From contig JASEVX010000013.1 of NCBI GenBank assembly GCA_031761405.1, positions 33,856,458 through 33,920,457 on the forward strand: a stretch of DNA of 64,000 nucleotides, given 5' to 3'. Positions 1,111-52,541 of this stretch are shown here, piece by piece. The position numbers and the translations under genes were made by a program. The notes under the pieces were generated by a model. That model saw only the letters and a list, made by a program, of their open reading frames with translations. It had not been told where the DNA came from and made no database searches. Each line of letters begins with the position of its first letter. Within the stretch, counting starts at the first letter, position 1. Source of the stretch: Serripes groenlandicus. Taxonomy: Eukaryota; Mollusca; Bivalvia; Cardiida; Cardiidae.

Positions 1111-1435
1111 TCAATACAGAGATAAATACATATTCGCAGGTCAGCATAGCTCACCAGAAAGGGGCTTGGTAGTTTATGCCATTGCTGTTGATATACAAAT
1201 GTTGTATTTGCATGTGTCATGGGTCATATTTAACCCTTTTCACATAGAAAAAATATGCAGAAAACGATATTGAAAGATTCCTGGTAAGAATGTTGAAAAT
1301 CTCTATTAATTACAAGTTTAATTATTGACGAGTTTTAAAATGTTGTTGAAAAAGGAGAAATTGATTAATTTAAGCAATTTCTTCAGTTCCGACAATGTAT
1401 TCACAAGTTGTATGCAGGCGGGAAACTTAAAGTAC

Positions 1436-1572
1436 CTCTGTACATAGCCATCCTTATTTTCTCCATTAAATCTGTCGCCTGGCCCGGAATCAAATCAATG
1501 GCAAGCTCACCCCGACCATTTTTAACATTGGCATCCACATTGGCCTTCAGTAATACCATGATGATAGAGTAC
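1436..1572 (-). CDS. TRANK1: TRANK1-like exon 18 (ankyrin; last exon in window)
   Basis: Residues 1036-1081 plus 1 nt. It contains IIMVLLKANVDANVKNGRGE, then LAIDL, an ankyrin repeat continuing exon 17. Acceptor TTGAAG, donor GTACTT, phases 2 to 1. The coding sequence must continue left of position 1; no exon is visible in 1-1435. Confidence 0.75.
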
Positions 1573-4500
1573 CTTCAATAACAAGAATTATGCGTAATTA
1601 TATGTCACCGACTTTGACTATCAAAACAAGTGTAAAATACAAAGACAAAATGTGTGTGCAAAACTTGAAGTCGCTCTAACAAGTGCAAAATACAAGAAAT
1701 TAGAAAACAAAAAACATTATATGACGCATAAAATTATTTATTTATTATATTATTATGTCTCCCCTTCTCTGAAAGGGAGACATACTGTATTTGTCATTAT
1801 TCTTCTTATTATTATTCTTAACTTTTGTTTGTCCCGAGCAGAACTCGGAAACTATAACTCTGGGCCACTTTGTTGCAAAGTTATCTCCCTTTGTTCAATA
1901 TTTTAATAGTGTAAACTTTGCATTTTTAGGGGAGACATCTGTTTTCGATGCAGTGCTCAAAAAACAACCCATCTAGTTATTATTATCATTATATTTATTT
2001 GTGCTAAAAAAAATCAAAATTAAGGAGCCAGCTTGTTATGGGGTTAAACTCTGCCCGACAAGTAGACACATTTAAACACATCTGCAGCAGACCACTTTTG
2101 AAAACATTGTGGCAAAAATATTGAAACTATAGTATCTATAAAGGACAGAACAACTATTGAATAATGTTTCCAAAAGTGTTCAGCTGCAGAGGCATAAATC
2201 TAATGGTACTAAACTCCAGTCTTTTATCAGAAAATGCATTTAGGTATATTTAACATATATGCGGATGGCAGGGCTCCGCAAAACACGTAAATTGCCGGTT
2301 AGACCGAATTTATACTAGACGGACCGGTTTCAATCTTAAAACTAGTAAAAAATCGGACCATGATTCTCTATAAAGTTAACTATATAACACCTACACTATA
2401 GGTCACTTTGTAAACGTGAACAGTCGTCTGTAATCCTTTGAGATAGTCACTTACCATAACGTAAACCGCATTATCGATCCAATTAATTTTGACAATCATG
2501 TAAACTTATTGATAATGCCAATTGAAATTCCTAGGTTATAATCAATGCTTGACCACTGATGGTTGACTGAATTACCAAAGAAAATCCCTATGAATGCATG
2601 CGATAATGATTTCGTGTATCTGATTGGCTCTATGGCTTTTAGGGAATTTCTATAAGTCACGTGACCTTTGTTACCTTTCAAGATGGCAAAAGTGGCATGG
2701 AAAAAGAGATATTTACAAAACCTTTCGTAAAAATAAATATGTCACTAAAAATATAAGGCAGAAATTTTAACTTCATTTCATTTCATTTGTCTTTCAATAC
2801 ATTGGTGAAAGGGCTCAAAACAATTTACTTGCAATGTCCACCAAAGAAGGAACTTACGCTCCTTTGTTTTAACATATCGAGGGAAATTTCAATAACATTT
2901 ACATTGAGTCTGCTCCATAACTAGGAAACGAGCACCTAGCTGTTGGCTTCATACGCAACTTCACGGCAATCGAAATTCAGGATGCTTTAATGGGCATCGT
3001 TACTAGAAACGAGCACATGTTGCACCATACACAACTTCATGGCGCTCGGAATTTGGGTTGCTTCGTTGGGCATCGTCACTCACGAGCACCTGTTGCATCA
3101 AACACAACTTCATGGATGTTTTGATGGGCACCTTGTTGAAGGAATAGATAGATAGAGAGAGAGAGAGAGACTAAAAGCTCAGCAATGCAGAATATTATGA
3201 TAATGGACATGAATGAATATTTTGCAAAATGTCTAATTTGATTTTAAATTGCCAAATCTTTTTTTTTTTTCTTTACCTTTTCCGACATACAGTTGCTTTC
3301 TGACACCTCTGTAGCAGACTTTTGAAAACGAGAAATGAGCAATTAGCAACTTCCCCTTTTTCCACAATGTTTTCAACTTCATTATAAAATTATCCTTTCA
3401 TTCATACAGATTTGTTCAGTCATCTGCTTCGGATTTCCTACAGGAGTTCTCTCTACATCTTACCTCAACTCCGTGGTAACGCCTCTCTCTTTAGCAGCAG
3501 TGTGTAGGGGAGTATTCCCATCTTTGTCAAACAAATTTACCTCTTTGTATCTCTTCAATAGCCATTTCAAAAGAATTCCATTCTTGGCTGTGATTGAAAC
3601 AAAAGAACAATTGATTCTTTGTTTGGTGTTTAACACTACTTTCAACAATTGTTCAGTTATACAATAACATTTACTGGGTAAAATAACAGTACTGCTGGTC
3701 TATTTATCTTGACACCAGGCAGTCAGTTGTAATGCTAACCCTGAAAACCTATGCGCAAAGGAGGGCAGCAATTACTACCAATTTTAAGGTATCTCTTTGG
3801 TATGATTCGGCCGAGGATCGAACCTGTGACATCCAACAACCTAGGTGTATGCTCTACCACTACACCACCAAGGTGGTGGATCAATCAAATAAGTGGAGCA
3901 GTGGTAGATTGTCGGCCTCTGGCACCAAAGGTCTGAGGTTCGAATCATGTGAAGTGCGGTTTCAACCTTTGAGACGTTTCTACACAAAGGGTGCAACTAC
4001 TTGTGAAGTCTCCATGAAGCAGGCATCAAGCTTGATTAAAATTAAGCTGATATCTTGTGTTGTAATCAATGTGAAATAAATCAGTTTAAACCATACTAAT
4101 CAATCAATCAATCAATCAATTAAAGAATTAATCAATTAATCAATTAATCGATGAAACAACTCACCAACAAGTAAACAGATTCTAACAGCTGCATGTAGGT
4201 AGGTGTCACCTTTATTCAAGGTCAAGGTCATTTTGTCTGCACCAAAGTCCAGAAGATATTGAATGAGATCAGCTGACCATCGGTGAGCCTATAGATATAT
4301 ATATAAACATATGAATTTTACTAGCAATTTGGGTCCTTTTGTGTATGTTACTAATAGATCCCCATGGTAGAGTGCCCTTTCCTAGCCTAGTACTGGTTTT
4401 TTTTACCCAGGGATCATGAATAAATTAACTGTTGCTGTGATATAACTGAACTAAAGTTGCAAATGGCATAAAACCCTTGCTGAAAACCTATCACAGATAT

Positions 4501-31500: not shown

Positions 31501-34500
31501 TGTAAGGCAGGCATTCCAAATTTATCTTCAATTTTTTCTAAGGGAGCTCCAAGTTCCAAGAATTTTTCTACCAATGAAATCCCCCATGGTATCAGGCTGA
31601 TACATGAAGCGTCTAGTAATCCACTGATATCAAAGCCAGAAAAGTCTAAATTCTTACAAAACCCTCTCAACAAGCAATCTGGACCACTGAAAATAAAATT
31701 ACCATGATCAAAAACAAAAGGCCCAACAGGACCATTATTGCTCCACTGCACTGGGCAAAAACTTAAATCACTAAGGCTATATAAGGCAAAATATCATTTC
31801 CCCCTGGAGGCCATGTTTCATGACCAATCACCTTGGATTGAAAGATTCTGAAAGAGGTTCACCCAAGGAACATTTCTACCAAATTATTTGAAAATGAGTA
31901 TCATATTATAGGAGAAGTTTTCACTATAGCTATATAATGCAAAACAGTGCATTTAACATTTAACCCTTTCCCTCTTATACACGTTTATTGACGCCTTTGC
32001 AGCAGACAGCTTTTTGAAAACATAGTGACAAAAGAAGAAATTGCTCAAAACGAGCAATTTCTCCTTTTGCCACAATTTGTTTCCACTTTTAGTCATAGGT
32101 TATCCATTCAATTATAGAGATTTTTTACTTTTAACAAAAGTCGTCTGCTGCAGAATTGTCGTATGAGGCAAAGGGTTAAGAGAAGACATTGAGAGGATAT
32201 CCAGTGGTTACAGAGGAAGCATGCATGACAGAAAAAAAATCAAACTGGGGTTCAAACCCTGTTGTTCTGCTCTTGAAACAGTGGCTGTACTGATACCCGA
32301 CACAGCCAATGGTAGTATCATTTTGATATGAATCAGCAAGCATGGCAATTTCCTTTTCCCATTGTGTTCAAGTTTTGGAAATAAAAGGCTGTTATTCGAC
32401 AAGCGTTCAGAAGTTATTACGAGATATGCGAGTCGCAGTAATATCCGCAGTAGATTCCTAGACATGTTATTTGTTGTTCTTATTTTCCCAATTATTTATT
32501 TTATGCATAAATGACCCTGTAAATAAAGACCACACAAACCATATCGTTCTCTTCCCATTGGTAGTCTTTAACCCTTTCCCTCATACGACAATTCTGCAGC
32601 AGACGACTTTGAACGTATTTTGTCAAAACATAGAAAATGAATGGATAACAAAAAGTGGAAAACATTGTGGCAAAAGGAGAAATTGCACGTTCTGTTGTCT
32701 TTAAACACAGGTTTGACTGTACTAGCAAAAGAAAATTAACACTGAGGTGTCTCTTCTTTTGAATTCCAATCATTGACTTTAAAGAATTCTTTTTTTATTT
32801 AAGAATTTAAGACACCCCTTAACCCTTTCCCACATACAGCAAATCTGCAGCAGACAACGTTTCAAAAAACAACAAGTCAAAAATTGGAAAAATCTGTCTG
32901 ATGCCGATTTATTGCATGCAGAGGCATCAAAAAGCGCCTGTATGAGGGAAAAAGGTTAACCTTTTCCCACATACAGATGCTTTATTACACCTCTGCAGTA
33001 GATGACTTTTTCACACATTATGACAAAAGGAGAATTTGTGGATAATGAGCAATTTCTCCTATAGCCACAATGTCTTCAACCCTTTTCAATAATTAAACTT
33101 CCATTTAAAAAGGTTTACCATATATATTTAACAAGATGTTTTCAAAGTCATCTGCTGCAAATGTGTTGTATGTGGAAAAGGGTTTAAAGCTTTTGAAGGT
33201 CTAACCTGTTTCCCAGCACAAGCATCCTTAAACTATCCCAACACTTATTTCCGACCAAAGTCTTCAGGGTTTTGGTCCATATTTGAATATGGGAGATTAC
33301 TGGTACGACAAGATCATCCAGTACTGGATCTCCTGAAAATTAGAAGAAATGCAGAGCTCATGTTCAAATTCTAAATAAAGACAGCCTTGATGGTGTTCTG
33401 GTAGAGCATCCGCCTTCGGTGCAGGTCATGGGTTCGATCCCCGGACAGAAAAAGTATTGATCAAATTGTCGCACTGTAACAATTTTTTTGGTACCCATAA
33501 CATAAGGTTGAAATGAGTAATAAGAGTTATTATACCTCACTTTTGTCTACAATGGTAAAATCCCATTACCCGAAAAAGAGATATCTTGACTATCAGAAAC
33601 ATTTTCAACCTTTTTGACATGTGACCAAGCGAAAATTGACTGTCAGTTCATGCGACCGCAGTGATATTTTGAATGTCATATAAGGGCAAATAACTGCTTC
33701 AATATTTTAGCTTAATCATGACGTGATTGCCTCCCTTATACACATACAGCAGTGACGTCACTTAATTGTGTTCGGAATAAATATCATATGGCAGCATGTG
33801 TGACATTGATAATGTCAACCCTCGAAACAGAATGTCACCCTCGGCTTACGCCTCGGGTGACGTTCTGCTCTCGGGTTGACGATATCAATGTCACACATGC
33901 TGCCATATGATATTTATATATTATTAAAAGTGCATTTATGTCATGTTACACCAAATAAATTCCTTCTTCGTTTCAATGTAAATCAACCAGTTTCAACCCT
34001 CAATTGTCACACTTTCTAAGCGTGCGACAGGGAGAACAACCCTACATCATTGAAAAGAGTTACCTCAAAGCTTTAAAATAATCCATTATGTACATGTTCA
34101 TATATTATGCAAGAAAGAAATCACTCCAATGAAAACCTATGATGATCTAGAGCTAATCTGTAAAGATTTGGTGAATTACTTACGTGAATTTGGCATGTTT
34201 TGAACTAAGGTACATAACTCTGTTAGAAATGAGATCACGTCTTGTGATGTGCCAGCCACTCCTATGGCAATTTTCAGCCCCCTACACACAAAAGGAAGGG
34301 TAAATTGGGGGTCGTCACGAATCCTTTTAGCTGCCTGGTATCCGCGCCAATAACCCTGACGTAAAACAACAACAATAGTCAACAGGAATTCTTAAACCCT
34401 TCCCACATGCGCAGACACATTCTGACAAATCTGAAGAAGAAAACTTTTGAAAACACTTTGGCAAAAGGAGAAATTGCATTATGGTATTCATAAATGTTAT

Positions 34501-36868
34501 TTAATGTTGTGTATAGTGGCAAAAAGTATTTTGTTTAAAGTTTTGTAGCGGGATAATTGTCTCACATGCAGACACATTTTGAAGCATCTACTTTTTTGAA
34601 TTTAATACTTACATTCGTTATGATCAAAGGACAAGTAATCTGGTCTTTTCCCCACAATGTCCCTCTTCTTACTCAACAAAACCCTATGCTGTGGGTGTTC
34701 AAAAGAATCATCTCACTTAGACGATATTTTGAGTATCCACATCATAGGGTCCGAGTATCAAATAAGGGTTTTAGACCATGAAAAAAAAAAACTTAACTAG
34801 AACTCTGCAAAATGTTTTCAAAGTCATCTGCTGTAGGTTTGTTGTATGTGGGAAAGGGTTAATAATACATTGTATGTCTTATGTAGCAACTACCCTGAAC
34901 CCCTTTCGACAATTCCATGGTCCATAATCCAGTCTTGCATGGGCGGATCTGGCTGGTTTGCAAAAGGAACCGAGCTCTCATGGATATCTAACTACTGTAT
35001 AAGTTTGATTGAGATACAATCAAAACTGAAGACTTTATCTCGTTCACATGCTATATTATAGCAATTCTGACAATTTCAAGGGCCATAATCAAGTATTGCA
35101 TGGGCGGATCTAGCTGGTTTGCGAAAGGAACCAAACTCTCATGGATACCTACTGTGTAAGTTTGGTGAAGATCAGATACTAAATGGGGCCTCTATGTGTT
35201 CACAAGTTCCTATTATAAGAATTTCGACAATTCCAAGATCTATAATCCAGTCTTGCATGGGCGGATCTGGCTGGTTTGCGAAAGGAACAGAGCTCTCATG
35301 GATATCCAACTACCGTATACGTTTGATCGAGATACAATCAAAACTGAAGACTGTATTGCGATCCCAAGCAATTGTTTATGGACGCATGCACACACGGACG
35401 ATGGACACCACGCCACGGCATAAGCTCTTCTGGCATTTGGAAATAGAAAATCTCTATCAGTGGAAAAACTTTATGGCAAAAGGAGAAATTGCTTGTTTTG
35501 AGCAATTTCTTCTTTTGTCACTATGTTTTCTAAAAGCCGTCTGCTGCAGAGGAGTCAGAAAGCGTCTGTAGCAGGGAAAGAGTTAACTCAGAGCTCAAGA
35601 TCAAGCAACGTTTGTCATGTCCTAAAATACATATTTGAACACCAAAACTTGTGTTGTGCGAACTCAAAAGAATCATCTCTTTTGAACACCCTCAACATAG
35701 GTTATCATCAGTGCCACATACAGACGCTTTCTGATGCCTCTGCTGCAGATGACTTTTGAAAACAGTATCACAAGAGGAGAGAGGGCTATTTCTCCTTTTG
35801 TCACACTGATTTCTACCTTTTTCAGTAGTTTAATCTTCATTTAAAGATATTTTCAGTGTTTTTGCAAACTTCCTGTTGTCTGCTGCAGATTTGAGACAAA
35901 TTTGATGTATGTGGGAAAGGGTTAACTCATATTTATCCAGTCCTCTGTAAACTAACCTTTAGAAACGTTGGACCAACAGTAACAGCTGTGGTGGCATCAT
36001 TTACTGCATCTTGGTAATGTGACATTTGGAAGAAAACTAGTGACCTGTTACACAATATTTTAACAGCCTCATCCCTGAACTGTGGTTGTCCAGGAAACAA
36101 CTCTGCTACCTGAAGTGCCAGCGTGTAGTTGTCAAGAGCGTAAGCATAGCGGTTGGAATTAAGAAACTCTTGACCGCAGCCTTTAAAGTACATCATCCGT
36201 GGCCATGCCTCAGTAGCTATAGATAGATAAACATTAATCTTTAAAATCTTTAACAAGAGCACCGCAAGCGAAAGCCAACACTCGAAAAAGGGGCATTACT
36301 GAATAATTTTTACAGCCAGAAGGTTATGTTGGTATAGTAATGCGTATTGTTCCTACATGTGTACCAAGTTTCATTAGGAAATGTTGAACAGTTCTCCAGA
36401 TACGAGGTAAGGTTAAAGTTTTGGGACGACACAGACAACAATTCTTTTGAGTATCCACAAACAAAGGGTTATCAAGAGCTGGGAACCAGCACCCTTATTA
36501 TAACAAAAGTTTGGTATAAGCCTTTCCCTCATATAGACGCTTTCTGACGCCTCCGCAGCAAACAGCTTTTAGAAAACATTGCGACAAAAGAAGAAATTGC
36601 TCAAAACGAGCCATTTCTCCTTGTGTCACCATGTTTTCAACTCTATTCAATGATTGTACTTTCATTTAAAGGGAGTTTCCTATTTTTTTCGGGTAGTTTT
36701 TTCCTGCTCCAGATTTGTTGTATATGGGAAAAGGTTAAATAGAAACTTACGATTCGGTGGAAAGGTTATTCCAAGCTCGTAGCAACACTGAGACAAATGT
36801 CTGTCTAACTCTCTCCCTGGCATGGGTCTTCTCCCCCGCCCTCGACCTCCGCGAGATTGATTTGCCAT
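1436..36868 (-). CDS. TRANK1: TRANK1-like gene (TPR and ankyrin repeat protein), 18 exons, 3' end outside window
   Basis: I joined 18 minus-strand exons by hand, each with an AG acceptor and GT donor (exon 1 donor only). Reading frame is kept across all 17 junctions, giving 3244 coding nt (1081 codons plus 1 nt) before the gene leaves the window. The product starts with an RG-rich basic stretch, then alternates TPR exons (2, 7, 13) with ankyrin-type exons (5-6, 10-12, 16-18). That combination matches TRANK1, whose vertebrate form also has a helicase-like C-terminal part that would lie beyond the left edge. Three modules can be aligned: exons 2-6, 7-12 and 13-18 (1041, 1074 and 1011 nt). Introns are packed with mobile elements, including a 6.35-kb Ngaro. 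The role is not known from sequence; TPR and ankyrin repeats normally bind proteins. It could be another TPR/ANK family member. Confidence 0.78.
1757..1945. repeat. Short hairpin-ended repeat
   Basis: Starts with a hairpin, ATGTCTCCC...AAGGGAGACAT, and ends with GGGGAGACAT, so the first arm recurs inverted at the far end. It resembles the other hairpin-ended elements here but lacks satellite units. Confidence 0.5.
1951..3460. other. Intron sequence, no gene seen
   Basis: Contains TTAA-MITE fragments (about 2084-2190 and 3300-3440, recognised by CTGCAGCAGA and CAATGTTTTCAAC pieces) and a (GA)n run at 3153-3172. No coding or RNA signal is supported. Confidence 0.5.
3464..3587 (-). CDS. TRANK1: TRANK1-like exon 17 (ankyrin)
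   Basis: Residues 995-1035. Clear ankyrin repeat: LFDKDGNTPLHTAAKERG. Acceptor AATCACAG, donor GTAAGA, phases 1 to 2. A minus-strand SINE ends about 20 bp upstream of the acceptor, so polypyrimidine and branch signals may come from SINE sequence. Confidence 0.82.
3607..3878 (-). repeat. tRNA-derived SINE
   Basis: On the minus strand the tRNA-like head has an A-box-like GTAGTGGTAGAGC and B-box GGTTCGATCC, then CATACCAAAG and a tail ending in TGTTTGGTG-type sequence. It lies head-to-head with the next SINE and 20 bp from the exon 17 acceptor. Confidence 0.8.
3893..4150 (+). repeat. tRNA-derived SINE, second family
   Basis: Plus-strand head AGCAGTGGTAGATT with B-box-like GAGGTTCGAATC; the body runs to a (ATCA)n tail at about 4098-4150. 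The tail stops 14 bp from the exon 16 donor. Confidence 0.7.
4165..4288 (-). CDS. TRANK1: TRANK1-like exon 16 (ankyrin)
   Basis: Residues 954-994. Ankyrin repeat: YLLDFGADKMTL, then GDTYLHAAVRICLLVG. Acceptor CTATAG, donor GTGAGT, phases 0 to 1. The tail of a plus-strand SINE stops about 14 bp from the donor. Confidence 0.8.
4352..4428 (+). repeat. SINE fragment
   Basis: Reverse-complement match to 60650-60735 and 61400-61471: GGCACTCC-like end, CTAGTACTGG, ACCCAGGGATCATGAATAA. Confidence 0.6.
4546..5505. repeat. Minisatellite made of hairpin arms
   Basis: About 22 units of roughly 40 bp with consensus ACCTTATGTTGTTGGTAC, CAAAGAA and CATCTCACTA. A higher-order block of about 182 bp occurs twice (from about 4928 and 5110). 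The last unit (5431-5505) is a full palindrome centred near 5469: arm, CATCTCAGTGAGATGATTC, inverted arm. Single-copy palindromes of the same sequence occur elsewhere (for example 34681-34755). Confidence 0.85.
5690..5800. repeat. TTAA-MITE remnant beside exon 15 donor
   Basis: Pieces AATGTTGTTGAAAAAGGC, CATCTGCTACATATA and right end TATGAGGGAAGGGTTAA (TTAA 5797-5800). Confidence 0.7.
5815..6005 (-). CDS. TRANK1: TRANK1-like exon 15
   Basis: Residues 890-953. It contains GHVWLKTSYELIRKDDWDRA, the module III copy of the exon 4/9 block. Acceptor TTTTAG. The donor is taken as GTATGG (phase 0 out), which fits exon 16. A TTAA-MITE end lies 13 bp from the donor. Confidence 0.72.
6227..6457 (-). 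mobile_element. TTAA MITE (piggyBac-like), full length
   Basis: 231 bp including a TTAA at each end. Ends TTAACCCTTTCCCTCATAC and TATATGAGGCAAAGGGTTAA. The internal palindrome AAATTGCTCGTTTTGAGCAA is intact. Minus means the TATAGACGC end lies right. Confidence 0.88.
6540..7020. repeat. TTAA-MITE remnants
   Basis: Scattered pieces such as GCAGCAGACAACATTTGAAA (about 6580), GGTAAAAGGAGAAACTG (about 6900) and CATCTGCTACAGATTTGTTG (about 7000). No gene seen. Confidence 0.55.
7032..7129 (-). repeat. SINE fragment with target duplication
   Basis: 98 bp with a (TGAA)n tail and CGACAGCTAAGGTCATTTAG, flanked by 12-bp direct repeats ATACTGTAAGAA (7020-7031 and 7130-7141). Confidence 0.8.
7142..7346. 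mobile_element. TTAA MITE, diverged copy
   Basis: Starts ATTAACACTTACCCACATA and ends GTGTGGGAAAGGATTAA (TTAA 7342-7345), 11 bp from the exon 14 donor. Confidence 0.7.
7358..7526 (-). CDS. TRANK1: TRANK1-like exon 14
   Basis: Residues 834-889. It begins AHLRVAKALKGLKKMESSLN, the last TPR helices. Acceptor TTTTAG, donor GTTAGT, phases 0 to 1. A TTAA-MITE ends 11 bp from the donor. Confidence 0.76.
7550..8060. other. Intron with fragments of HINE-like core sequence
   Basis: Contains GGTCACCCTAGGAACATTTC and AGAAGATTTTTAAA, the core words of the 40-kb and 60-kb satellite elements. No gene seen. Confidence 0.5.
8117..8382 (-). CDS. TRANK1: TRANK1-like exon 13 (TPR, module III)
   Basis: Residues 745-833. 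Strong TPR: DQGNLKYKSGDIQEAVELYT, then YGNRAEGYLKLGQYDCALDD. Acceptor TTTGCAG, donor GTAAGA, phases 1 to 0, like exons 2 and 7. Confidence 0.84.
8430..8676 (-). repeat. tRNA-derived SINE
   Basis: Tail TTGTTTGGTGTTTTATGCC at left, CAGCCAGTCAGTCGTAATTC in the body, degenerate B box (GACCGAACCCACGACC read in reverse) and head at right. Confidence 0.78.
8833..9062 (-). mobile_element. TTAA MITE (piggyBac-like)
   Basis: 230 bp, TTAACCCTTTCCCTCATACC to GAGGGAAAATGTTAA, with AAATTGCGCATTTTGAGCAA inside. Confidence 0.85.
9616..9737. repeat. Palindromic MITE-like element
   Basis: Arms AATACACATTTTCTCGGGCA and its imperfect inverse near 9716-9737, with CATCTGTGGACGC against GCGTCCGCAGATG. About 122 bp, just left of the Ngaro. 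The rest of 9063-9800 shows no gene. Confidence 0.7.
9801..10078 (+). repeat. Ngaro repeat A1 (left end)
   Basis: 278 bp, identical by eye to 14953-15230 at an offset of 5152. It starts CAGGATTATGG and ends at TTTTCAAATTT, after which A1 and A2 flanks differ completely. It marks the left end and probably holds promoter or 5' leader sequence; gag starts 53 bp later. Confidence 0.95.
10132..11067 (+). CDS. Ngaro ORF1, gag-like nucleocapsid protein
   Basis: 311 aa from the first ATG at 10132 (the open frame extends slightly upstream without an ATG). The N-terminus is basic (PRRKQ, KRPRTRRDD). Near the C-terminus is a C-x7-C-x4-C-x3-H zinc-finger pattern (residues 247-264), then a retroviral-type CCHC knuckle, C-x2-C-x4-H-x4-C (266-279), then an RGG-rich tail (285-309), all consistent with RNA binding. 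ORF2's open frame overlaps its last 89 nt in the +1 frame. Confidence 0.85.
   Translation: MPRRKQPNTEQATAKRPRTRRDDPETATLGAIPDAPASGENNSVTNNFVDFESVLRQTLGSDSGLPGCSTDPVIFPDSDSIPTAVHLGSDEVSAHVPTALRQKIWSNQFINFALLLKGSVELNDIYSAGPLFTNEKGQIMETRPKATTDRVASAEKWTDAFIIFMSVYLQKYPDKAQELLQYMVIIREAAGRSKSMAWRSYDEQFRIRQASNLQPWDKLNHDLWLRIMMLSQSYEPQPAHTMARGSCLDFNKGTCSWKSCKFPHTCSHCGIANHAKINCFKLNPGRGGSSFRGGRGFHSQGRGGGSRSGNQ
10979..12748 (+). CDS. Ngaro ORF2, reverse transcriptase-RNase H
   Basis: Open from just after a TGA at 10976 to TGA 12746-12748; no in-frame ATG occurs before the RT core. Numbering from codon 11039: RT motif A aspartate in GKADIRSAFR (D181), catalytic YLDD (247-250), then FLGLDID; RNase H acidic residues in FTDSA (D414), LEFF (E453), CDN (D478) and IADALSR (D528). 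RT followed directly by RNase H with no integrase or protease is the DIRS-order arrangement. Because the frame overlaps ORF1 by 89 nt in +1, translation probably uses frameshifting or another non-standard route. All key residues are present. Confidence 0.92.
   Translation, partial: TQVGEVLPFGEVGVSTHRVEVAVRGVATSNADVESSFSCTASPDIGYLFSLANTPINVLNLERELVHYDPAKAAAILNGFKYGFPLYYTGPRTPTISKNLKSARARPDIVREKILSEINAGRVAGPYDYRPIPTLRISPLGLVPKHEPGAFRLIHHLSYPSGSSLNDFIDPKLCSVQYTRFDEAVNMVHDLGQGCLLGKADIRSAFRLLPVSILDFDQLGFMFEEKYYFDKAMPFGCSLACKTWELFASFLEFTVARHSTVGSLLHYLDDFLFGGRNNTNHCAVIMSVFHEKMELLGVPVAQEKTEGPTTHLCFLGLDIDTIDMVIRIPSDKIVEIVRKIKAIISGKKCTLKQMQSLIGSLNFACRAILPGRPFCRRLIDSICGLTKAHHHLRITAGMREDLQLWLHFFSNFNGVSVFNERYWVSNEDINLFTDSAGGCSLGFGAYFCGKWAFGQWPQDWVENGITNDITVLEFFPIVVSLHIWGEHLRNKKIAFRCDNMAVVHIVNSMTSKSKCVMALLRDFTLLCLRMNIVFRAVHVSGASNKIADALSRFQFQKFHQLAPEADLDSTPVPVHLWNILLANRKTLYQ
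12745..13614 (+). CDS. Ngaro ORF3, tyrosine recombinase
   Basis: 289 aa from the ATG at 12745, which overlaps the ORF2 stop as ATGA. The tyrosine recombinase active site is complete: Arg in YYGLLRVSEI (R138), Lys in RFSKTCQRG (K176), HSFR (H251, R254), GRW (W277) and the nucleophile in FERYIR (Y285), four residues before the stop. It should cut and rejoin the circular cDNA at the B-A junction for integration. It belongs to the phage-integrase-like YR family of DIRS/Ngaro elements. Confidence 0.92.
   Translation: MSIAPNSQNAYKNALGAFTSFRKKYRLPNLYPAPIGHITLFISCCVQLGYSPSTISTYVSGISFYHKIRNQPDPTSVFIVKKMIEGAKRAKTTCDVRSPITDSILRKILNILPNTCYTMYETYLFKAAFLTAYYGLLRVSEITHTSPLQAHRPLALSDIHVENCSTAIQITIRFSKTCQRGTPTTLRIPATNDPSFCCVSAMRKFLNKRPVSSGILFCHENGSPLTRSQFSGVLAKAINLLGLPTFKYTTHSFRIGRASVLAAQGVPNEAIKKMGRWQSNAFERYIRLI
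13593..14276 (+). CDS. Ngaro ORF4, SGNH/GDSL-type hydrolase
   Basis: An open frame from 13593 (after TGA 13590) to TAG 14274-14276, overlapping the end of the recombinase ORF by 22 nt in another frame. Numbering from 13617: WIIGDSLV with Ser29 (block I), HLGGND with Asn90 (block III), DEVHLSP with Asp183 and His186 (block V), a complete SGNH esterase triad plus Asn. There is no ATG before block I; the first in-frame Met is residue 61. So it is either coupled to ORF3 translation, spliced, or started at a non-AUG codon. SGNH hydrolases are known passengers of Ngaro and CR1 elements; their substrate there is unknown. Confidence 0.88.
   Translation, partial: KVHPPYLNLDCVIVRSVGCLLRHLLSLLPGVWIIGDSLVARVADRAAFRRKENLGIQSGQVHWLGKGGMKWNELHGQVQLTMLFNSPPAMIIIHLGGNDLVSIKQGKLIKSIKRDLNYISSVFPSALIVWSDILPRLSWRGITPTLENLGKINRKRKRINRAGRQMARELPRGRVIIHEIDTETKGLFSRDEVHLSPVGNDIFLSTLSEAIDSFLKNPVKRLYDANQ
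14315..14952 (+). repeat. Ngaro repeat B1
   Basis: 638 bp, matching 15514-16150 except for one extra T in a run near 14653. It starts TGGCGGTATTCTTGCGG and ends CCTTAAATAAT, directly abutting A2. Antisense open frames in it occur twice only because B is duplicated. Confidence 0.95.
14953..15230 (+). repeat. Ngaro repeat A2
   Basis: 278 bp, identical by eye to A1. The B1-A2 joint (AAATAAT then CAGGATT) is the internal copy of the joint expected in a circular intermediate. Confidence 0.95.
15231..15513 (+). other. Spacer between Ngaro A2 and B2
   Basis: 283 bp unique within the element. It begins with a CCCAACCCAACCCA run and contains no coding frame I can support. Its presence makes the right end B1-A2-spacer-B2. 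Confidence 0.8.
15514..16150 (+). repeat. Ngaro repeat B2 (right end)
   Basis: 637 bp. It ends CCTTAAATAAT at 16150, after which the sequence is TAGGTATATAAT, unlike the CAGGATT of A2. This defines the right border of the insertion. Confidence 0.95.
16446..16662 (+). mobile_element. TTAA MITE, left end eroded
   Basis: TTCATATAGACGCTTTCTGA at left, AAATTGCTCAAAACAAGCAA inside, GTCGTATGAGGGAAAGGGTT at right. Confidence 0.8.
16679..16860. repeat. HINE-like element beside exon 12
   Basis: Starts ACAAGAGCACCGCGTACGGC, has a GGACGACCACGCCG-rich stretch, and ends in a weak hairpin (GCTTTCG...AAAAGTCGAGC) plus TAAAAA. The right end is about 13 bp inside the intron from the exon 12 donor. Confidence 0.6.
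16874..16971 (-). CDS. TRANK1: TRANK1-like exon 12
   Basis: Residues 712-744. Ankyrin tail: KNGNGKLAVDFLDTRY. It aligns with exon 18 (KNGRGELAIDL) and the second half of exon 6. Acceptor CCACAG, donor GTAAGT, phases 2 to 1. A hairpin-ended element stops about 13 bp inside the intron from the donor. The following intron holds the Ngaro. Confidence 0.75.
16990..17450. repeat. Diverged TTAA-MITE copies in intron
   Basis: TTAATCCTTTCCCAAATAC at 16993, AGCATTGTGGCAAAAG near 17105, and a further degenerate copy near 17190-17370 ending TCTGCATGTGGGAAAGAGG. Confidence 0.6.
17593..17822 (+). mobile_element. TTAA MITE, full length
   Basis: 230 bp with TTAA at both ends, TTAACCCTTTCCCTCATATA to TATGAGGGAAAGGGTTAA; one of the cleanest copies. 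Confidence 0.9.
17823..18381. other. Intron, nothing recognised
   Basis: A short internal duplication (TTTGGATAATTCAAA near 17925 and 18055). No gene or named repeat supported. Confidence 0.45.
18382..18553 (-). CDS. TRANK1: TRANK1-like exon 11
   Basis: Residues 655-711. It starts ERVFLLETILKQPLDAMKDQ and continues GESVYHTITKIVPL, a degenerate ankyrin repeat aligning with exon 17 and the first half of exon 6. Acceptor TTTCAG, donor GTAAAT, phases 1 to 2. Confidence 0.74.
18600..19560. other. Intron with TTAA-MITE remnants
   Basis: Remnants near 18610-18785 (ends TATGTGGTTAAGGGTTAA), 18785-18930 and 19380-19530; a short hairpin-element fragment near 19150-19345 (GTTATGCAGCATAGGAGATA). No gene. 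Confidence 0.5.
19579..19812 (-). CDS. TRANK1: TRANK1-like exon 10
   Basis: Residues 577-654. It ends in NYLHAAARFALFTG, an ankyrin-type helix pair that also closes exon 16. There is a cysteine-rich CNCSRDC near the start. Acceptor TTTCAG, donor GTAAGT, phases 1 to 1. Confidence 0.77.
20199..20417 (+). mobile_element. TTAA MITE
   Basis: Left target changed to ATAA; right end TATGAGAGAAAGCGTTAA. Internal AAATTGCACAAAACGTGCAA palindrome present. Confidence 0.82.
20760..21337. mobile_element. HINE-like element
   Basis: Starts TCAAGAGGGCCAAGATGGCC (hairpin), carries two diverged units with ATTTGAACAATCTTGGTAGA, then GACGGACGACGACGGAC, then the terminal hairpin GCTCACCTTGAGCC...GGCTCTACGTGATC and TAAAAA. 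Confidence 0.72.
21370..21598 (-). mobile_element. TTAA MITE, full length
   Basis: Inserted at the TTAA of an ACAGT-ended MITE; the empty site GGTGGTCTTTAAACACAGG is seen at 22142-22158. TTAACCCTTTTCCTCATAC to GAGGGAAAGGGTTAA. Confidence 0.9.
21810..21974 (-). CDS. TRANK1: TRANK1-like exon 9
   Basis: Residues 522-576. It contains CYDQLRRIKDNDVWTLALQK, then EWQCIIYLLLGP. It aligns with exons 4 and 15. Acceptor TTTCAG, donor GTAAGA, phases 1 to 1. Confidence 0.77.
21988..22168 (+). mobile_element. ACAGT-ended MITE, uninterrupted
   Basis: 181 bp from TACAGTCAAACCTATGC to ACACAGGTTGGACTGTA. It supplies the empty sites for the nested insertions at 20760 and 21370. Confidence 0.78.
22438..22950. 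mobile_element. HINE-like element
   Basis: Starts AACAAGAGGGCCATGATGGC (hairpin) then GATCGCTCACC. It carries repeated units around GGGCCATAATTCAGTCATGC and ATCTAGCTACTG, and ends in hairpin CTCACCTCGTCACTATGTGA plus CAGGTGAGCTAAAAA. Confidence 0.75.
23061..23214 (-). CDS. TRANK1: TRANK1-like exon 8
   Basis: Residues 471-521. It starts GHWWKGKILCQMGAIQEGF, completing the TPR of exon 7. The reading frame was chosen by phase (0 in, 1 out). Acceptor CTATAG, donor GTATTT. A TTAA-MITE ends 23 bp from the donor. Confidence 0.75.
23543..24115. repeat. Palindromic MITE, one truncated and one full copy in tandem
   Basis: Ends CACAATAAGT...TATCTAGTG and CACTAGATAAACAC...TTATTGTG; internal stem GATGATTTATGGTATGTCAC against TGTGACATACCTGAAATCATC-type sequence. 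Copy 1 (23543-23672) lacks its right end. Copy 2 is split by a SINE. Confidence 0.7.
23689..23937 (-). repeat. tRNA-SINE with 14-bp target duplication
   Basis: Flanked by AAGTAAATGTTTAT at 23675-23688 and 23938-23951. The tail TTGTTTGGTG is at left and the tRNA-like head (GTGGTAGAGCGTCCACCTCG in reverse) at right. Confidence 0.88.
24116..25030. other. Intron, no gene seen
   Basis: A poly-C run around 24162-24180; otherwise unique AT-rich sequence. A short HINE-core fragment (AAGCCCCGTCCCCTGGCAGC) is near 24510. Confidence 0.45.
25039..25289 (-). CDS. TRANK1: TRANK1-like exon 7 (TPR, module II)
   Basis: Residues 387-470. TPR signature: KQTGNEAFKRTDTSEALRLY, then YSNRANVFYTLKGWEEAL and CDPSYHK. 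Acceptor TTTCAG, donor GTTGGT, phases 1 to 0. Confidence 0.82.
25360..25763. mobile_element. HINE-like element, two satellite units
   Basis: Left TAGTCCCCTACCGG, right hairpin AGTCCCCTTCGGC...GCCGGTAGGGGACTA. Two nearly identical units of about 151 bp begin CTAAGTCCAAAAAGGGGCAT at 25380 and 25531, followed by ACTGACGGACGGACTGACGG. Confidence 0.78.
25897..27056. mobile_element. HINE-like element interrupted by a SINE
   Basis: Hairpin start AGGGCCAAGATGGCCCTAAA. Several units with CAATCTTGGTAGA, CTAGATGAAGCTACATACCA and CTTCTACTTT. The right end is eroded (GACCGACGGACG). Confidence 0.68.
26572..26875 (+). repeat. tRNA-SINE with 14-bp target duplication
   Basis: The head is strongly tRNA-like (CCGGTAGCTCAGTCGGTAG, then GAGTTCGAATCCCGGCTC). 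Body has TTTCCGACGATTGACAAAAG, tail GGCGTTAAACCCCAATCAAT. Flanked by GGGCCTTCTACTTT (26558-26571, 26876-26889), lying inside a HINE-like element. Confidence 0.9.
27060..27190. repeat. TTAA-MITE remnant
   Basis: AAATTGCACATCATGAGCAA palindrome with CTGTATGTGGGAAACAGG right end. Confidence 0.65.
27379..27608 (-). mobile_element. TTAA MITE, full length
   Basis: 230 bp; ends TTAACCCTTTCCCTCATACG and ATGAGAGAAAGGGTTAA. A second, decayed copy (TTAACCCACATGTAGACGC) begins at the same right TTAA. Confidence 0.9.
27848..28997. mobile_element. HINE-like element with 7-unit 152-bp satellite
   Basis: Starts AACAAGATGTGTTTGTGAAA (hairpin GTGTTTGTGAAACAC) then GATGCCCCCGAAT; ends CCGAATTGGTGATTCCGGG then GGCATAAAA. 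Between are seven very similar units starting at about 27879, 28031, 28183, 28333, 28485, 28639 and 28793. Confidence 0.82.
29109..29271 (+). mobile_element. ACAGT-ended MITE copy
   Basis: TGTCAAACCTGTGCTAAAGA to GGTCTTTAAACACAG, with the TTAA site unoccupied. Confidence 0.68.
29367..29633 (-). CDS. TRANK1: TRANK1-like exon 6 (ankyrin repeats)
   Basis: Residues 298-386. Two ankyrin repeats: GQTALHQAVLSGQ then LLKHGCDPNLRDREGKRPID. Acceptor AACAG, donor GTAGAT, phases 1 to 1. It alone covers what exons 11+12 (270 nt) and 17+18 (261 nt) cover in the other modules, so one intron has been lost here or gained there. Confidence 0.82.
29700..29953. repeat. Diverged TTAA MITE with local inverted repeat
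   Basis: CCATTTCCCTTATAAAGACA to GAAGGAAAGGGTTAA; centre holds inverted copies of TTTTCAATTCTATTCTATTA near 29815 and 29855. Confidence 0.65.
30068..30482. mobile_element. HINE-like element, single core unit
   Basis: ACGAGAGGGCCATGATGGCC hairpin start; core with GGTCACCCTAGGAACATTTC; GCACGACGGACAATTCGCC; terminal hairpin CTCGACTGGCTTTCAGCCAG then TGGAGCAAAAAA. Confidence 0.75.
30610..30910. repeat. Two diverged TTAA-MITE copies
   Basis: A degenerate copy around 30610-30790 and a short copy 30789-30907 (TTTAACCCTTTTCCTCATAT to GTGTGAAAGGGTTC) with most of the interior deleted. Confidence 0.7.
31083..31165. repeat. Solo palindrome related to the 4546-5505 array
   Basis: CTATGCTTTGGGTACTCAAAAG, shortened here to TTTGGGTACTCAAAAG, against GTACCCACAATATAGG. 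Followed by AGATTAAATAAG, the usual right flank. Confidence 0.65.
31190..31417 (+). mobile_element. TTAA MITE
   Basis: TTAACCCTTTCCCTCATATA to TATGAGGGAAAGGGCTA; right target mutated. Confidence 0.87.
31472..31686 (-). CDS. TRANK1: TRANK1-like exon 5 (ankyrin-type)
   Basis: Residues 226-297. Ankyrin-like helices: VEKFLELGAPLEKIEDKFG, then MPALHVGTDLAVKTG. The last segment aligns with the ends of exons 10 and 16. Acceptor TTTTCAG, donor GTATTT, phases 2 to 1. Confidence 0.78.
31780..31935. repeat. HINE core fragment
   Basis: Has GGTTCACCCAAGGAACATTT and AAATTATTTGAAAATGAGTA, without terminal hairpins. Confidence 0.5.
31960..32179 (+). mobile_element. TTAA MITE, full length
   Basis: 220 bp; TTAACCCTTTCCCTCTTATA to TATGAGGCAAAGGGTTAA. 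Confidence 0.88.
32470..32721 (+). mobile_element. ACAGT-ended MITE with a TTAA-MITE inside
   Basis: Body ATTTATTTTATGCATAAATG to GGTTTGACTGTA. A truncated TTAA MITE (about 32568-32690) occupies the same TTAA used by the insertion at 21370. Confidence 0.75.
32819..33187. mobile_element. Two TTAA MITEs sharing one TTAA
   Basis: Copy 1 is 32819-32959, copy 2 is 32956-33187; they share TTAA 32956-32959. Copy 1 is internally deleted. Copy 2 ends 17 bp from the exon 4 donor. Confidence 0.78.
33206..33332 (-). CDS. TRANK1: TRANK1-like exon 4
   Basis: Residues 184-225. It contains IWTKTLKTLVGNKCWDSL, alignable with the VW...L...W blocks of exons 9 and 15. Acceptor TTTTCAG, donor GTTAGA, phases 1 to 2. 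The exon is too short to show in a simple ORF scan. A TTAA-MITE ends 17 bp from the donor. Confidence 0.75.
33385..33450 (+). repeat. tRNA-like SINE head
   Basis: TGTTCTGGTAGAGCATCCGC, then GGGTTCGATCCCCGGACAG; no recognisable tail. Too irregular for a tRNA gene. Confidence 0.6.
33778..33919. repeat. Long palindrome (hairpin MITE)
   Basis: Arms of about 68 bp (ATATCATATGGCAGCATGTG and inverse) with a few mismatches around a 6-nt loop CTTACG. Confidence 0.82.
33945..34140. repeat. Dispersed repeat shared with the 44.6-kb loop
   Basis: ACACCAAATAAATTCCTTC, TCAATTGTCACACTTTCTAA and GAAAAGAGTTACCTC recur at about 44640-44770. Confidence 0.7.
34184..34355 (-). CDS. TRANK1: TRANK1-like exon 3
   Basis: Residues 127-183. 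It begins GYWRGYQAAKRI, the second helix of the TPR unit that started in exon 2. Acceptor ACGTCAG, donor GTAAGT, phases 0 to 1. It matches exon 8 (GHWWKGKI) and exon 14 (AHLRVAKAL) in position and phase. Confidence 0.78.
34393..34865. repeat. Decayed TTAA MITEs around a solo hairpin palindrome
   Basis: MITE start TTAAACCCTTCCCACATGCG at 34394; palindrome ACCCTATGCTGTGGGTGTTC against GAGTATCCACATCATAGGGT (34681-34751); MITE right end TATGTGGGAAAGGGTTAA at 34845-34862. Confidence 0.7.
34880..35437. mobile_element. HINE-like element with three satellite units
   Basis: Units of roughly 170-180 bp share CATGGGCGGATCTGGCTGGT and GAGCTCTCATGGATATC; then ACACACGGACGATGGAC and CATAAGCTCTTCTGGC. Confidence 0.65.
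35438..35587 (-). mobile_element. TTAA MITE, left part missing
   Basis: AAATTGCTTGTTTTGAGCAA inside, GCAGGGAAAGAGTTAA right end. Confidence 0.78.
35640..35925. repeat. Solo hairpin palindrome and diverged TTAA MITE
   Basis: CTTGTGTTGTGCGAACTCAA against AACACCCTCAACATAGG; then MITE from GTGCCACATACAGACGC to TATGTGGGAAAGGGTTAA (TTAA 35922-35925), 30 bp from the exon 2 donor. Confidence 0.7.
35957..36216 (-). CDS. TRANK1: TRANK1-like exon 2 (TPR, module I)
   Basis: Residues 40-126. TPR signature: GQEFLNSNRYAYALDNYTLA, then NRSLVFFQM and a DAVNDATTAV helix. The acceptor is TATAG before 36216 and the donor is GTTAGT from 35956. Phase 1 in, 0 out, identical to TPR exons 7 and 13, which supports module duplication. 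Confidence 0.8.
36251..36437. repeat. HINE-like fragment
   Basis: Starts AACAAGAGCACCGCAAGCGA with one core unit (AAAGGGGCATTACTGAATAA, TACCAAGTTTCATTAGG). The right end is missing. Confidence 0.55.
36518..36738 (+). mobile_element. TTAA MITE beside exon 1 donor
   Basis: AAGCCTTTCCCTCATATAGA to TATATGGGAAAAGGTTAA; the right half is of the diverged subtype. Confidence 0.78.
36751..36868 (-). CDS. TRANK1: TRANK1-like exon 1 (start codon)
   Basis: Residues 1-39 plus 1 nt. The ATG lies at 36868-36866. The N-terminus is arginine/glycine rich (RGGRGRGRR), followed by a likely helical segment with ELDRHLSQCCYELGIT. The donor GTAAGT starts at 36750. A TTAA-MITE right end (TTAA 36735-36738) lies only 11 bp inside the intron. 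The exon joins exon 2 in phase 1. Confidence 0.75.
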
Positions 36869-51680: not shown

Positions 51681-52541
51681 CTGAAAGGATAAAGAAACGC
51701 AGGGTAATCATTTGAGGTGATTTAAAGTGATGTGTTTGATGTTATATATACACTATTTTATATGAGTATAAAAACCAATCTTTAATAAACAAATTTCCAA
51801 AATGTCATTAGATTTTGACCAATAATTCATTAATAATTGAAGCACATTTGACGGTACCCCCCAATATCGCAAAGTGAAATCGACTGACTCGTCAGTATCT
51901 CGTATGCCCCCCTCGCGTGAGAGGCAGACCAACGTAAGACTTACAGTTTTTGGGTGAATGTGGTGATTATGATTGCCTACCGTATTACTAGCGGTTTCAG
52001 TGGCAGTAACGTGGCGATTACGCAGGTGGGAAAGACGAATAGCCCTGTCTTGACGTCGCGACGTTACGCGCGGACGTCCCGATCGCGGTCGATCGGCAAC
52101 TCTTCCGGTTTCTCTCAAACGACGGACAAGACGTTCTATGGTGGAAACATTCACACCAAAAACTGCATAGCAACCTGTTCTTGCCTCTGACCTTGCATTA
52201 GCAATGCAATAGCCTGACCCCTCTGAACTTCCGCCAGCCGTACCACGATTGCAAGAGCTTCAAATTTAATTCAAAAAGCGGAAAGTGATGTGTATACCTC
52301 AAGAGTATCAATTGGTATGACAAGATGTTTTGACGATTTTGTCATCATTATTCTGCCCGTGTTTTGGGCCTTTCATCACTTTCCCCAGGTGGCACGGAGA
52401 AATACACGGTTGAGTAACTTTAGGTACGGGATTGAGTACACAGTGACCAAGATAGTCGTATGACCGGTTTTCATAATTTTACGCCAAGCATTTAAGAAAT
52501 TATTGCATATATTGCTACCCTGCGTTTCATTATCCTTTCAG
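51681..52541 (-). mobile_element. Deleted Tc1/mariner element
   Basis: 861 bp with terminal inverted repeats matching at 25 of 26 positions (outer 16 bases CTGAAAGGATAAAGAA on the left), flanked by TA on both sides and set in a (TA)n run. TA duplication is the Tc1/mariner hallmark. A transposase N-terminal remnant lies inside, but the full-length catalytic half is missing. Confidence 0.9.
51753..52260 (-). pseudogene. Tc1-like transposase remnant
   Basis: The minus strand encodes a paired-like HTH start (AIALLMQGQ upstream, then STIERLVRRLRETGRV and the GRPRVTSRRQDRAI linker typical of Tc1 transposases). A frameshift near 52160 separates the first helix block from the rest, and the DDE catalytic domain is absent. 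Not functional. Confidence 0.8.

What the first reader, a model, noticed from the sequence alone, without database searches (positions are those of the whole stretch)
1427..36750. TTAA-MITE ends sit next to many splice donors of the TRANK1-like gene
For at least 8 of 18 exons (1, 2, 4, 8, 9, 14, 15, 18) a MITE right end of the GTGGGAAAGGGTTAA type lies within about 4-30 bp inside the intron from the donor (distances about 11, 30, 17, 23, 12, 11, 13, 4 bp). Exons 12 and 16 have a HINE end or SINE tail 13-14 bp away. With roughly 60 MITE ends in 36 kb, about one such case is expected by chance. Either the MITEs prefer intron 5' ends, or these introns arose from or were re-built by MITEs (introner-like).
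Basis: partly seen in the sequence, partly recalled or inferred. Interest (0 to 1): 0.85.

Follow-up and report, generated by a model that had tools for sequence, protein, structure and literature searches.

The report
Transposon copies crowding exon edges
In the genes examined in this animal, a very common small mobile element sits 10 to 60 bases outside the edges of exons about five to ten times more often than deeper in introns, unlike in mammals, where mobile elements avoid exon edges, which suggests that the element prefers to land there.

Summary
The minus-strand TPR/ankyrin gene has 18 exons with consistent phases; 10 of 18 donors have a MITE copy starting 10-35 bp into the intron (1.6 expected, p=3.6e-8), the 8 named cases included. 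The MITE is of piggyBac type: TTAA ends, CCCTTTCCC termini, 414,828 exact 13-bp ends in the 1.76-Gb genome, and two 3.0-3.5 kb elements there with transposase matches, the same ends and one matching arm. An independent sample of myosin, SNF-transporter and kinesin exons reproduces the pattern and corrects it: MITE ends are enriched on BOTH sides of exons (donor 10-40 bp 6.5x, acceptor 20-60 bp 9.1x, versus 160-1450 bp). Genome-wide donor-motif counts agree (562 near, 305-320 in three controls); acceptor-motif counts agree weakly (2849 versus 2539). Introner origin is not supported: introns lie at the same places in three old modules with different MITE status, and near-donor MITEs end 300-1876 bp short of the acceptor. 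TE saturation of short introns fits poorly. Best reading: preferential insertion beside exons, probably in accessible linker DNA next to exon nucleosomes, trimmed by selection on splice signals. The mechanism is inferred, and the most consensus-like copies do not clearly follow it.

The parts
1436..36868 (-).
   Evidence: phases, GT-AG; Pfam Ank and TPR families
36517..36738 (+). full-length MITE, 12 bp inside intron 1 from the donor
   Evidence: 197 bits
35713..35925 (+). MITE, 31 bp from donor of exon 2
   Evidence: 125 bits
32956..33185 (+). MITE, 20 bp from donor of exon 4
   Evidence: 182 bits
31190..31418 (+). MITE, 53 bp from donor of exon 5
   Evidence: 256 bits
22948..23036 (-). MITE fragment with intact end, 24 bp from donor of exon 8
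   Evidence: 18.8 bits, exact TTAACCCTTTCCC end (context)
21689..21799 (+). decayed MITE, 10 bp from donor of exon 9
   Evidence: 32 bits
19483..19551 (-). strongly decayed MITE, 27 bp from donor of exon 10 (weak call)
   Evidence: 14.9 bits, E 3.5e-4
7146..7345 (-). MITE, 12 bp from donor of exon 14
   Evidence: 138 bits
5682..5799 (-). MITE half, 15 bp from donor of exon 15
   Evidence: 76 bits
   Evidence: 72 bits
1231..1421 (-). MITE, 14 bp by profile (TTAA about 5 bp in) from donor of exon 18
   Evidence: 59 bits
16993..17171 (-). MITE, 21 bp upstream of acceptor of exon 12
   Evidence: 85 bits
34393..34478 (+). MITE fragment, 37 bp upstream of acceptor of exon 3
   Evidence: 37 bits
18617..18783 (-). 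MITE, 63 bp upstream of acceptor of exon 11
   Evidence: 72 bits
29708..29952 (+). MITE, 74 bp upstream of acceptor of exon 6
   Evidence: 78 bits

Best explanation
The element is a ~230-bp near-palindromic MITE of the piggyBac superfamily (TTAA target, CCCTTTCCC termini), present in very high copy number and related by its ends to larger piggyBac elements of the same genome. Shown: its copies are enriched 10-40 bp after donors and 20-60 bp before acceptors, in the window gene (donor side) and in a sample of unrelated genes (both sides), over intron interiors. Inferred: the cause is a bias of insertion. New copies land preferentially in DNA immediately outside exons, most likely accessible linker DNA flanking nucleosomes that sit on exons. 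Selection then removes insertions that break the donor consensus (about the first 6-10 bp) or the polypyrimidine/branch region (about the last 20 bp), leaving a peak at 20-30 bp on either side. Introns pre-exist the MITEs; the MITEs lengthen them and put their ends next to the splice sites.
For: Window gene: 10 of 18 donors within 35 bp, 1.58 expected. Independent sample of 128 exons (29 myosin, 19 SNF, 80 kinesin): after removing near-duplicates (110 donors, 107 acceptors), MITE ends with up to 1 mismatch: donor 10-40 bp 11 in 3300 bp versus 25 in 49017 bp at 160-1450 bp = 6.5x (3.2-13.3), p=8.6e-6; acceptor 20-60 bp 15 in 4280 versus 17 in 43933 = 9.1x (4.5-18.1), p=2.2e-8; exact ends 5.3x (p=0.0055) and 10.3x (p=7.9e-6); myosin+SNF loci only 6.4x (donor 0-40 bp) and 7.6x. 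Without splice-site inference, from profile-match ends: 5.0x and 4.6x. By the whole-element profile in myosin+SNF loci: one MITE start per 170 bp at 0-40 bp after donors and per 130 bp before acceptors, versus 670 and 739 bp at 640-1450 bp, that is about 4x and 6x. Peak bin 20-30 bp on both sides: 12 of 33 donor hits below 110 bp; 9 of 31 acceptor hits below 140 bp, with a shoulder to 60 bp. 35 of 111 donors have a MITE within 60 bp and 43 of 107 acceptors within 80 bp. Whole genome: AGGTRAGT 1-30 bp before an exact MITE end 562; same at 301-330 bp 320; MITE end before the motif 305; scrambled motif 308. Acceptor-like TTTTNCAG 20-50 bp after a MITE end 2849 versus 2539 at 301-331 bp (z 4.2). 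TTAA itself only 1.5x (donor) and 1.3x (acceptor) denser near exons, MITE ends included. SINE motifs (my labels) are not enriched: tail 0 near/10 far at donors, 1/6 at acceptors; head 0/5 and 0/5. Near copies are not older on the whole: identity to consensus 0.798 versus 0.799, p=0.63; bits per base p=0.25; window gene p=0.70. piggyBac kinship.
Against: No chromatin data: the nucleosome step is an analogy. The most consensus-like copies are not over-represented near exons: identity at least 0.9 in 4 of 35 near versus 33 of 123 far (p=0.07), at least 0.85 in 6 of 35 versus 39 of 123 (p=0.14); the TCATA-type subfamily is less enriched than the ACATA type (near 18 T, 32 A, 5 undecided; far 26 T, 23 A, 10 undecided; p=0.11). 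That leans, weakly, towards older insertions or better retention near exons. With exact ends in myosin+SNF loci alone the donor excess is 2 hits, 4.6x, p=0.08. A looser scan that counts both MITE ends in the far zone gives only 2.9x and 3.4x. Raw genome-wide ratios are modest (1.8x donor, 1.12x acceptor), presumably because most motif matches are not splice sites. In the window gene acceptors within 35 bp are at chance. Exon edges in the sample are inferred, without transcripts. The far baseline comes from myosin and SNF loci, the kinesin stretches being short. A few other TE ends may share the pattern (AGGACTAGATAAGG, HINE ends, and one repeat at acceptors 2 near/2 far), which would point to a general and not a family-specific cause.
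Confidence: 0.5

Rival explanations
1. TE saturation or dilution: introns were short, the first insertions into them were necessarily near both splice sites, and later insertions into the interior diluted MITE density there. No insertion preference is needed.
For: At least 55% of intron sequence in the gene is repeated within the window alone, and the nearest repeat of any kind lies close to acceptors too (17 acceptors, median 63 bp). The most consensus-like copies are somewhat rarer near exons.
Against: In simulation of the window gene, 10 near-donor cases become the typical outcome only with TE-free introns of 70 bp and 400-bp elements, and that setting predicts 10.4 acceptors with a MITE within 75 bp against 4 observed (element sizes are assumed). 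Intermediate settings (quarter of unique length or 100 bp with 400-bp elements, 70 bp with 200-bp elements) give P 0.02-0.05 for the donors. Near copies are not older than far ones overall. Exact-ended copies are enriched similarly to decayed ones. SINE motifs show no such pattern.
Confidence: 0.2
2. Retention (border-induced selection): insertions are random, but deletions near exons are selected against, so MITEs survive longer beside exons.
For: Such a border effect is modelled for human introns (PMC9748784; abstract start in a search listing and section outline seen). Slight shortage of the most consensus-like copies near exons.
Against: It predicts older near-exon copies; median identity is equal (p=0.63). 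Exact-ended copies are enriched 5-10x. Deletion shelter should favour all TE families; SINE motifs are not enriched (small counts).
Confidence: 0.15
3. Introner: the MITEs created these introns and the splice sites were recruited next to them.
For: TTAA-ended DNA elements with ends near splice sites; introners are mostly DNA-transposon-like and commoner in aquatic lineages (PMC9860276, passages).
Against: Introns 2/7/13, 3/8/14, 5/10/16 are at matching places of modules 21-24% identical, with and without MITE. The distal ends of the near-donor MITEs lie 300, 1357, 1269, 1556, 973, 1876, 929, 1140, 1393, 1702 bp from the acceptors for introns 1, 2, 4, 5, 8, 9, 10, 14, 15, 17, and MITE-free lengths of the 17 closed introns are 312-8040 bp.
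Confidence: 0.03
4. Function: MITE ends near splice sites aid splicing and are kept by selection (CCCTTTCCC after the donor as an enhancer, or a hairpin looping the intron).
For: Positions are tightly next to splice sites.
Against: The two sides place opposite strands of the end in the RNA (pyrimidine-rich after donors, purine-rich before acceptors), yet both are enriched. Both MITE orientations occur near donors (6 minus, 5 plus). Several near copies are decayed. Not tested directly.
Confidence: 0.07

Closest known systems
piggyBac superfamily MITEs (TTAA-specific)
   Same: TTAA ends, CCC-starting termini, non-coding palindromic body, transposase-bearing relatives in the genome with the same ends
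   Different: Concentrated at exon edges; none of the papers listed showed this in title or abstract start (full texts mostly not read)
Intronic TE distributions in mammals (underrepresentation zones, PMC3088655; passages)
   Same: TE position relative to exon edges measured; the few mammalian TEs under 20 bp from exons favour donors
   Different: In human and mouse TEs are depleted near exons (all DNA elements within 50-100 bp, near-full-length ones within 2 kb); here the MITE is enriched several-fold in that zone
Introners (PMC9860276; passages)
   Same: Mostly DNA-type elements at intron ends; introners favour predicted nucleosome linkers
   Different: Here the introns pre-exist and the MITE does not span from splice site to splice site
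MITE-like elements in Lucina pectinata haemoglobin introns (PMC4732748; passages)
   Same: Clam introns carrying MITE-like repeats
   Different: No position preference in the passages seen; its authors could not identify the flanking target repeats

Membership tests
piggyBac superfamily (DDE_Tnp_1_7) non-autonomous element | TTAA at both ends of intact copies | tested here: met
   17 end pairs found in the window with up to 2 mismatches per 13-bp end; counting the printed list, 15 of 17 begin and 14 of 17 end with exact TTAA
piggyBac superfamily (DDE_Tnp_1_7) non-autonomous element | Transposase-bearing element in the same genome with the same termini and TTAA | tested here: met
   81 PF13843 matches; of 4 loci fetched, 2 (L150, L152) carry TTAA-CCCTTTCCC ends 3.0 and 3.5 kb apart around the match; one arm of each (87 and 89 bp) matches the MITE profile at E 4e-13 and 1.9e-13, the other arm shares only the terminal bases; L149 and L151 showed no such end pair
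piggyBac superfamily (DDE_Tnp_1_7) non-autonomous element | Mobilised by that transposase | not testable with these tools
   needs an excision or integration assay
MITE | Short, non-coding, inverted-repeat, high copy number | tested here: met
   230-position profile, matches on both strands of many copies; 414,828 exact 13-bp ends genome-wide, mirror control 1578
Introner | The element fills the intron, splice sites lie in it or at its target duplication | tested here: not met
   distal MITE ends 300-1876 bp from acceptors in ten closed introns
Introner | Intron is new (absent in relatives) | tested here: not met
   only within the gene: intron places shared by three old modules; orthologues of other species not available
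Exon-edge-targeting transposon | Excess of copies just outside exons over intron interior | tested here: met
   genome-wide motif counts
Exon-edge-targeting transposon | Excess already present among new insertions | tested here: inconclusive
   exact-ended copies enriched but copies at least 90% identical to consensus are 4 of 35 near versus 33 of 123 far

The most novel reading that the evidence does not exclude
A piggyBac-type transposon family recognises exon edges, through exon-positioned nucleosomes or a chromatin- or splicing-linked tether, and by inserting symmetrically 20-30 bp outside exons has come to border (extrapolating from the sample) roughly a third of the splice sites of a 1.8-Gb animal genome, reversing the exon-avoidance known from mammals and making introns grow from the splice sites inward.
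Probability: 0.3. Interest if true: 0.82.

Novelty: new variant of a known kind. Interest (0 to 1): 0.64.

Why it matters
In mammals transposable elements are scarce next to exons and this is read as purifying selection. A family that is several times denser there would show that insertion bias can outweigh that selection, would give a natural record of how chromatin at exons steers DNA transposons, and would offer a stage between ordinary intronic MITEs and introners: elements that land beside exons are one step from landing where they can be spliced out. The claim is directly testable with sequence reads from the species.

Tried and rejected
Introner origin: rejected on module-level intron conservation and far distal ends. 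Exon-plus-MITE duplication as the source of repeated proximity: rejected, the modules are only 21-24% identical in protein, MITEs near matching donors differ in distance and spacer, both orientations occur. Near-donor copies being the oldest: no difference in bits per base. Viral contigs as a source of related host DNA: 0 hits with two patterns. Protein relatives of the 1081-aa fragment: 7 generic ankyrin/TPR hits only, so orthology to TRANK1 was not tested; the length limit of that search excludes full-length relatives. Other TE ends at donors: AGGACTAGATAAGG 5 near/8 far, two HINE-like 5' ends together 4 near/1 far, too few to interpret. Both-flank coupling: 17 of 99 exons have a MITE on both sides, 18.0 expected if independent.

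Rows dropped before counts: of 30 myosin loci 29 and of 30 SNF loci 19 were used (L029, L039-L047, L049, L052 dropped for several stops or as a tandem large-exon cluster); of 83 myosin, 99 SNF and 126 kinesin matches only 29, 19 and 80 were examined, the kinesin rows picked by hand from the list, leaving out most that reach the domain end or hold several stops. Splice sites scoring -2 or less and acceptors of domain-start matches were left out; near-duplicates removed (117 to 110 donors, 113 to 107 acceptors; searches used an earlier hand list of 7 duplicates).

Full report
What was claimed.

Gene model. Splice sites were read from the sequence and tested in a script. Eighteen exons from 36868 to 1436 join into 1081 codons without a stop; all introns are GT-AG and all 17 phases fit once the donor of exon 14 is placed at GTTAGT. 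Pfam finds ankyrin and TPR families.

The element. The 15-mer occurs 62 times with up to 3 mismatches in the window against 2.0 in shuffles. Full-length copies are about 230 bp and nearly palindromic; a profile built from 16 end-paired copies finds 66 copies or fragments in 64 kb. Genome-wide the exact 13-bp end occurs 414,828 times on both strands, against 1578 for the mirrored word, and the 15-mer 121,603 times against 26. Of 81 matches to the piggyBac transposase family four loci were fetched; two of them (L150, L152) show TTAA-CCCTTTCCC ends 3.0 and 3.5 kb apart around the match, two do not. In both, one arm of 87-89 bp matches the MITE profile at E 4e-13 and 1.9e-13, while the other arm shares only the terminal bases. 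So the MITE is a piggyBac-superfamily relative; mobilisation by that transposase is inferred.

The observation in the window. The gap from donor to MITE is at most 35 bp for 10 of 18 exons (1, 2, 4, 8, 9, 10, 14, 15, 17, 18) and 53 bp for exon 5; the case of exon 10 is weak. Random placement of each intron's own MITEs gives 1.58 donors, p=3.6e-8; acceptors within 35 bp are at chance, 1 of 17, though 4 of 17 acceptors have a MITE at 21-74 bp. Counted on target sites, the first 35 bp of introns hold 10 MITEs and 6 empty TTAA (4 of these within the first 41 bp or less of intron 16, one array) against 35 and 211 in the rest (p=3.2e-5). Copies near donors are not older than the others in this gene (p=0.70) and come in both orientations.

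Are the introns made by MITEs? The protein is three modules of 21-24% identity. Introns 2/7/13 (phase 0), 3/8/14 (phase 1) and 5/10/16 (phase 1) fall at matching places, while their MITE gaps are 31/none/none, none/24/12 and 53/27/none. I infer that the introns are as old as the modules and that the MITEs came in later and independently. The far ends of the near-donor MITEs lie 300-1876 bp short of the acceptor in ten closed introns.

Is it simply that introns are full of TEs? At least 55% of intron sequence is repeated within the window. A simulation of sequential random insertion makes 10 near-donor cases typical only when the TE-free intron is 70 bp and inserted elements are 400 bp, and that setting overpredicts acceptor cases (10.4 against 4); intermediate settings give P 0.02-0.05. 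This simulation rests on assumed sizes and is a guide only.

Independent test. The window's own genome (1.76 Gb) could be searched. Exons matching myosin head, SNF transporter and kinesin profiles were taken with 1.5 kb flanks (48 used) or 130-160 bp flanks (80 kinesin exons). Splice sites were inferred near the ends of the profile matches. After removing near-duplicates, MITE ends with at most one mismatch lie 10-40 bp after donors at 11 per 3300 bp against 25 per 49,017 bp at 160-1450 bp (6.5x, 3.2-13.3, p=8.6e-6), and 20-60 bp before acceptors at 15 per 4280 against 17 per 43,933 (9.1x, 4.5-18.1, p=2.2e-8). Exact ends give 5.3x and 10.3x; myosin and SNF loci alone 6.4x and 7.6x, though with exact ends their donor excess is only 2 hits (4.6x, p=0.08). 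Measured from the profile-match ends, without splice-site inference, the ratios are 5.0x and 4.6x over wider bins; by the whole-element profile about 4x and 6x; a looser scan gave 2.9x and 3.4x. The highest 10-bp bin is 20-30 bp on both sides, with a shoulder to 60 bp before acceptors. In all, 35 of 111 donors have a MITE within 60 bp and 43 of 107 acceptors within 80 bp.

Genome-wide counts. AGGTRAGT 1-30 bp before an exact MITE end: 562. Controls: same motif 301-330 bp away 320 (partly another TE that begins with the motif), MITE end before the motif 305 (partly a satellite on C668), scrambled motif 308. Acceptor-like TTTTNCAG 20-50 bp after a MITE end: 2849, at 301-331 bp 2539. Both excesses are significant as counts (z about 8 and 4) but small, presumably because most motif matches are not splice sites; the acceptor excess is only 12%.

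What could cause it. TTAA sites are only 1.5 and 1.3 times denser near donors and acceptors, MITE ends included. SINE motifs show no enrichment (tail 0 near, 10 far at donors; 1 near, 6 far at acceptors; head 0 and 5, 0 and 5). Median identity of near and far copies is the same (0.798 and 0.799). These speak for a family-specific insertion bias. Against it, the most consensus-like copies are not in excess near exons (identity at least 0.9: 4 of 35 near, 33 of 123 far, p=0.07), and the TCATA-type subfamily is less enriched than the ACATA type (p=0.11). As the consensus comes from seeds that are mostly of the TCATA type, identity mixes age with subfamily, so age is not settled. A few other TE ends may also crowd donors. 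The near symmetry of the peak around the exon, with opposite strands of the end facing donor and acceptor in the RNA, fits a DNA-level cause such as linker DNA beside exon nucleosomes better than a splicing function. Exon-centred nucleosomes are recalled from general knowledge; introners' preference for predicted linkers is from passages of PMC9860276.

Compared with what is known. In human and mouse, TEs near exons are underrepresented, DNA elements within 50-100 bp, and those under 20 bp favour donors (PMC3088655, abstract and passages). Here the MITE is overrepresented in that very zone. Searches of the literature (listings, with passages of PMC9860276, PMC10294476, PMC4732748 and PMC3088655) showed no report of a MITE concentrated at exon edges; the library lacks most subscription papers, so this is not proof of absence.

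Verdict. Observation confirmed and broadened; introner reading not supported; preferential insertion at exon edges most likely, with retention and dilution as live rivals.

Noticed in passing
window 9500-16200: Intron 12 (8.5 kb) holds a plus-strand retroelement with a reverse transcriptase (10979-12745) and a tyrosine-recombinase-like ORF (12613-13611), DIRS-like by content (label recalled), followed by two near-identical stretches around 14273-14950 and 15487-16122.
   Followed up: partly
L150 and L152: Two 95% identical piggyBac-type elements (3.0 and 3.5 kb) share ends with the MITE; one has a 436-aa open frame, the other only shorter frames.
   Followed up: partly
L026, L030, L033, L054, L092 just after donors: A second repeat end, AGGACTAGATAAGG, lies 10-32 bp after 5 of 111 donors in the gene-sense orientation (8 far matches), so another TE family may share the exon-edge habit.
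   Followed up: partly
   Followed up: partly
window 27879-28944: Tandem array of a 152-bp unit, 7 copies, 95% matching, in intron 6.
   Followed up: partly
window 4578-5467: Array of a 38-bp unit, about 24 copies, in intron 15; on the gene strand many units hold donor-like AAGGTTAGT.
   Followed up: partly
G000:C1:4014230-4016787 and C668:1503699-1505977: MITE ends recur at spacings of about 75 bp or multiples (C1) and at other short spacings (C668), as if parts of the MITE had been amplified into satellite arrays.
   Followed up: no
window 56430-57485 (-): Single open frame of 352 aa matching glycosyl transferase family 11.
   Followed up: no
window 51756-52259 (-): ORF with helix-turn-helix domains (weak Pfam matches) of the kind found in Tc1/mariner transposases (recalled).
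   Followed up: no
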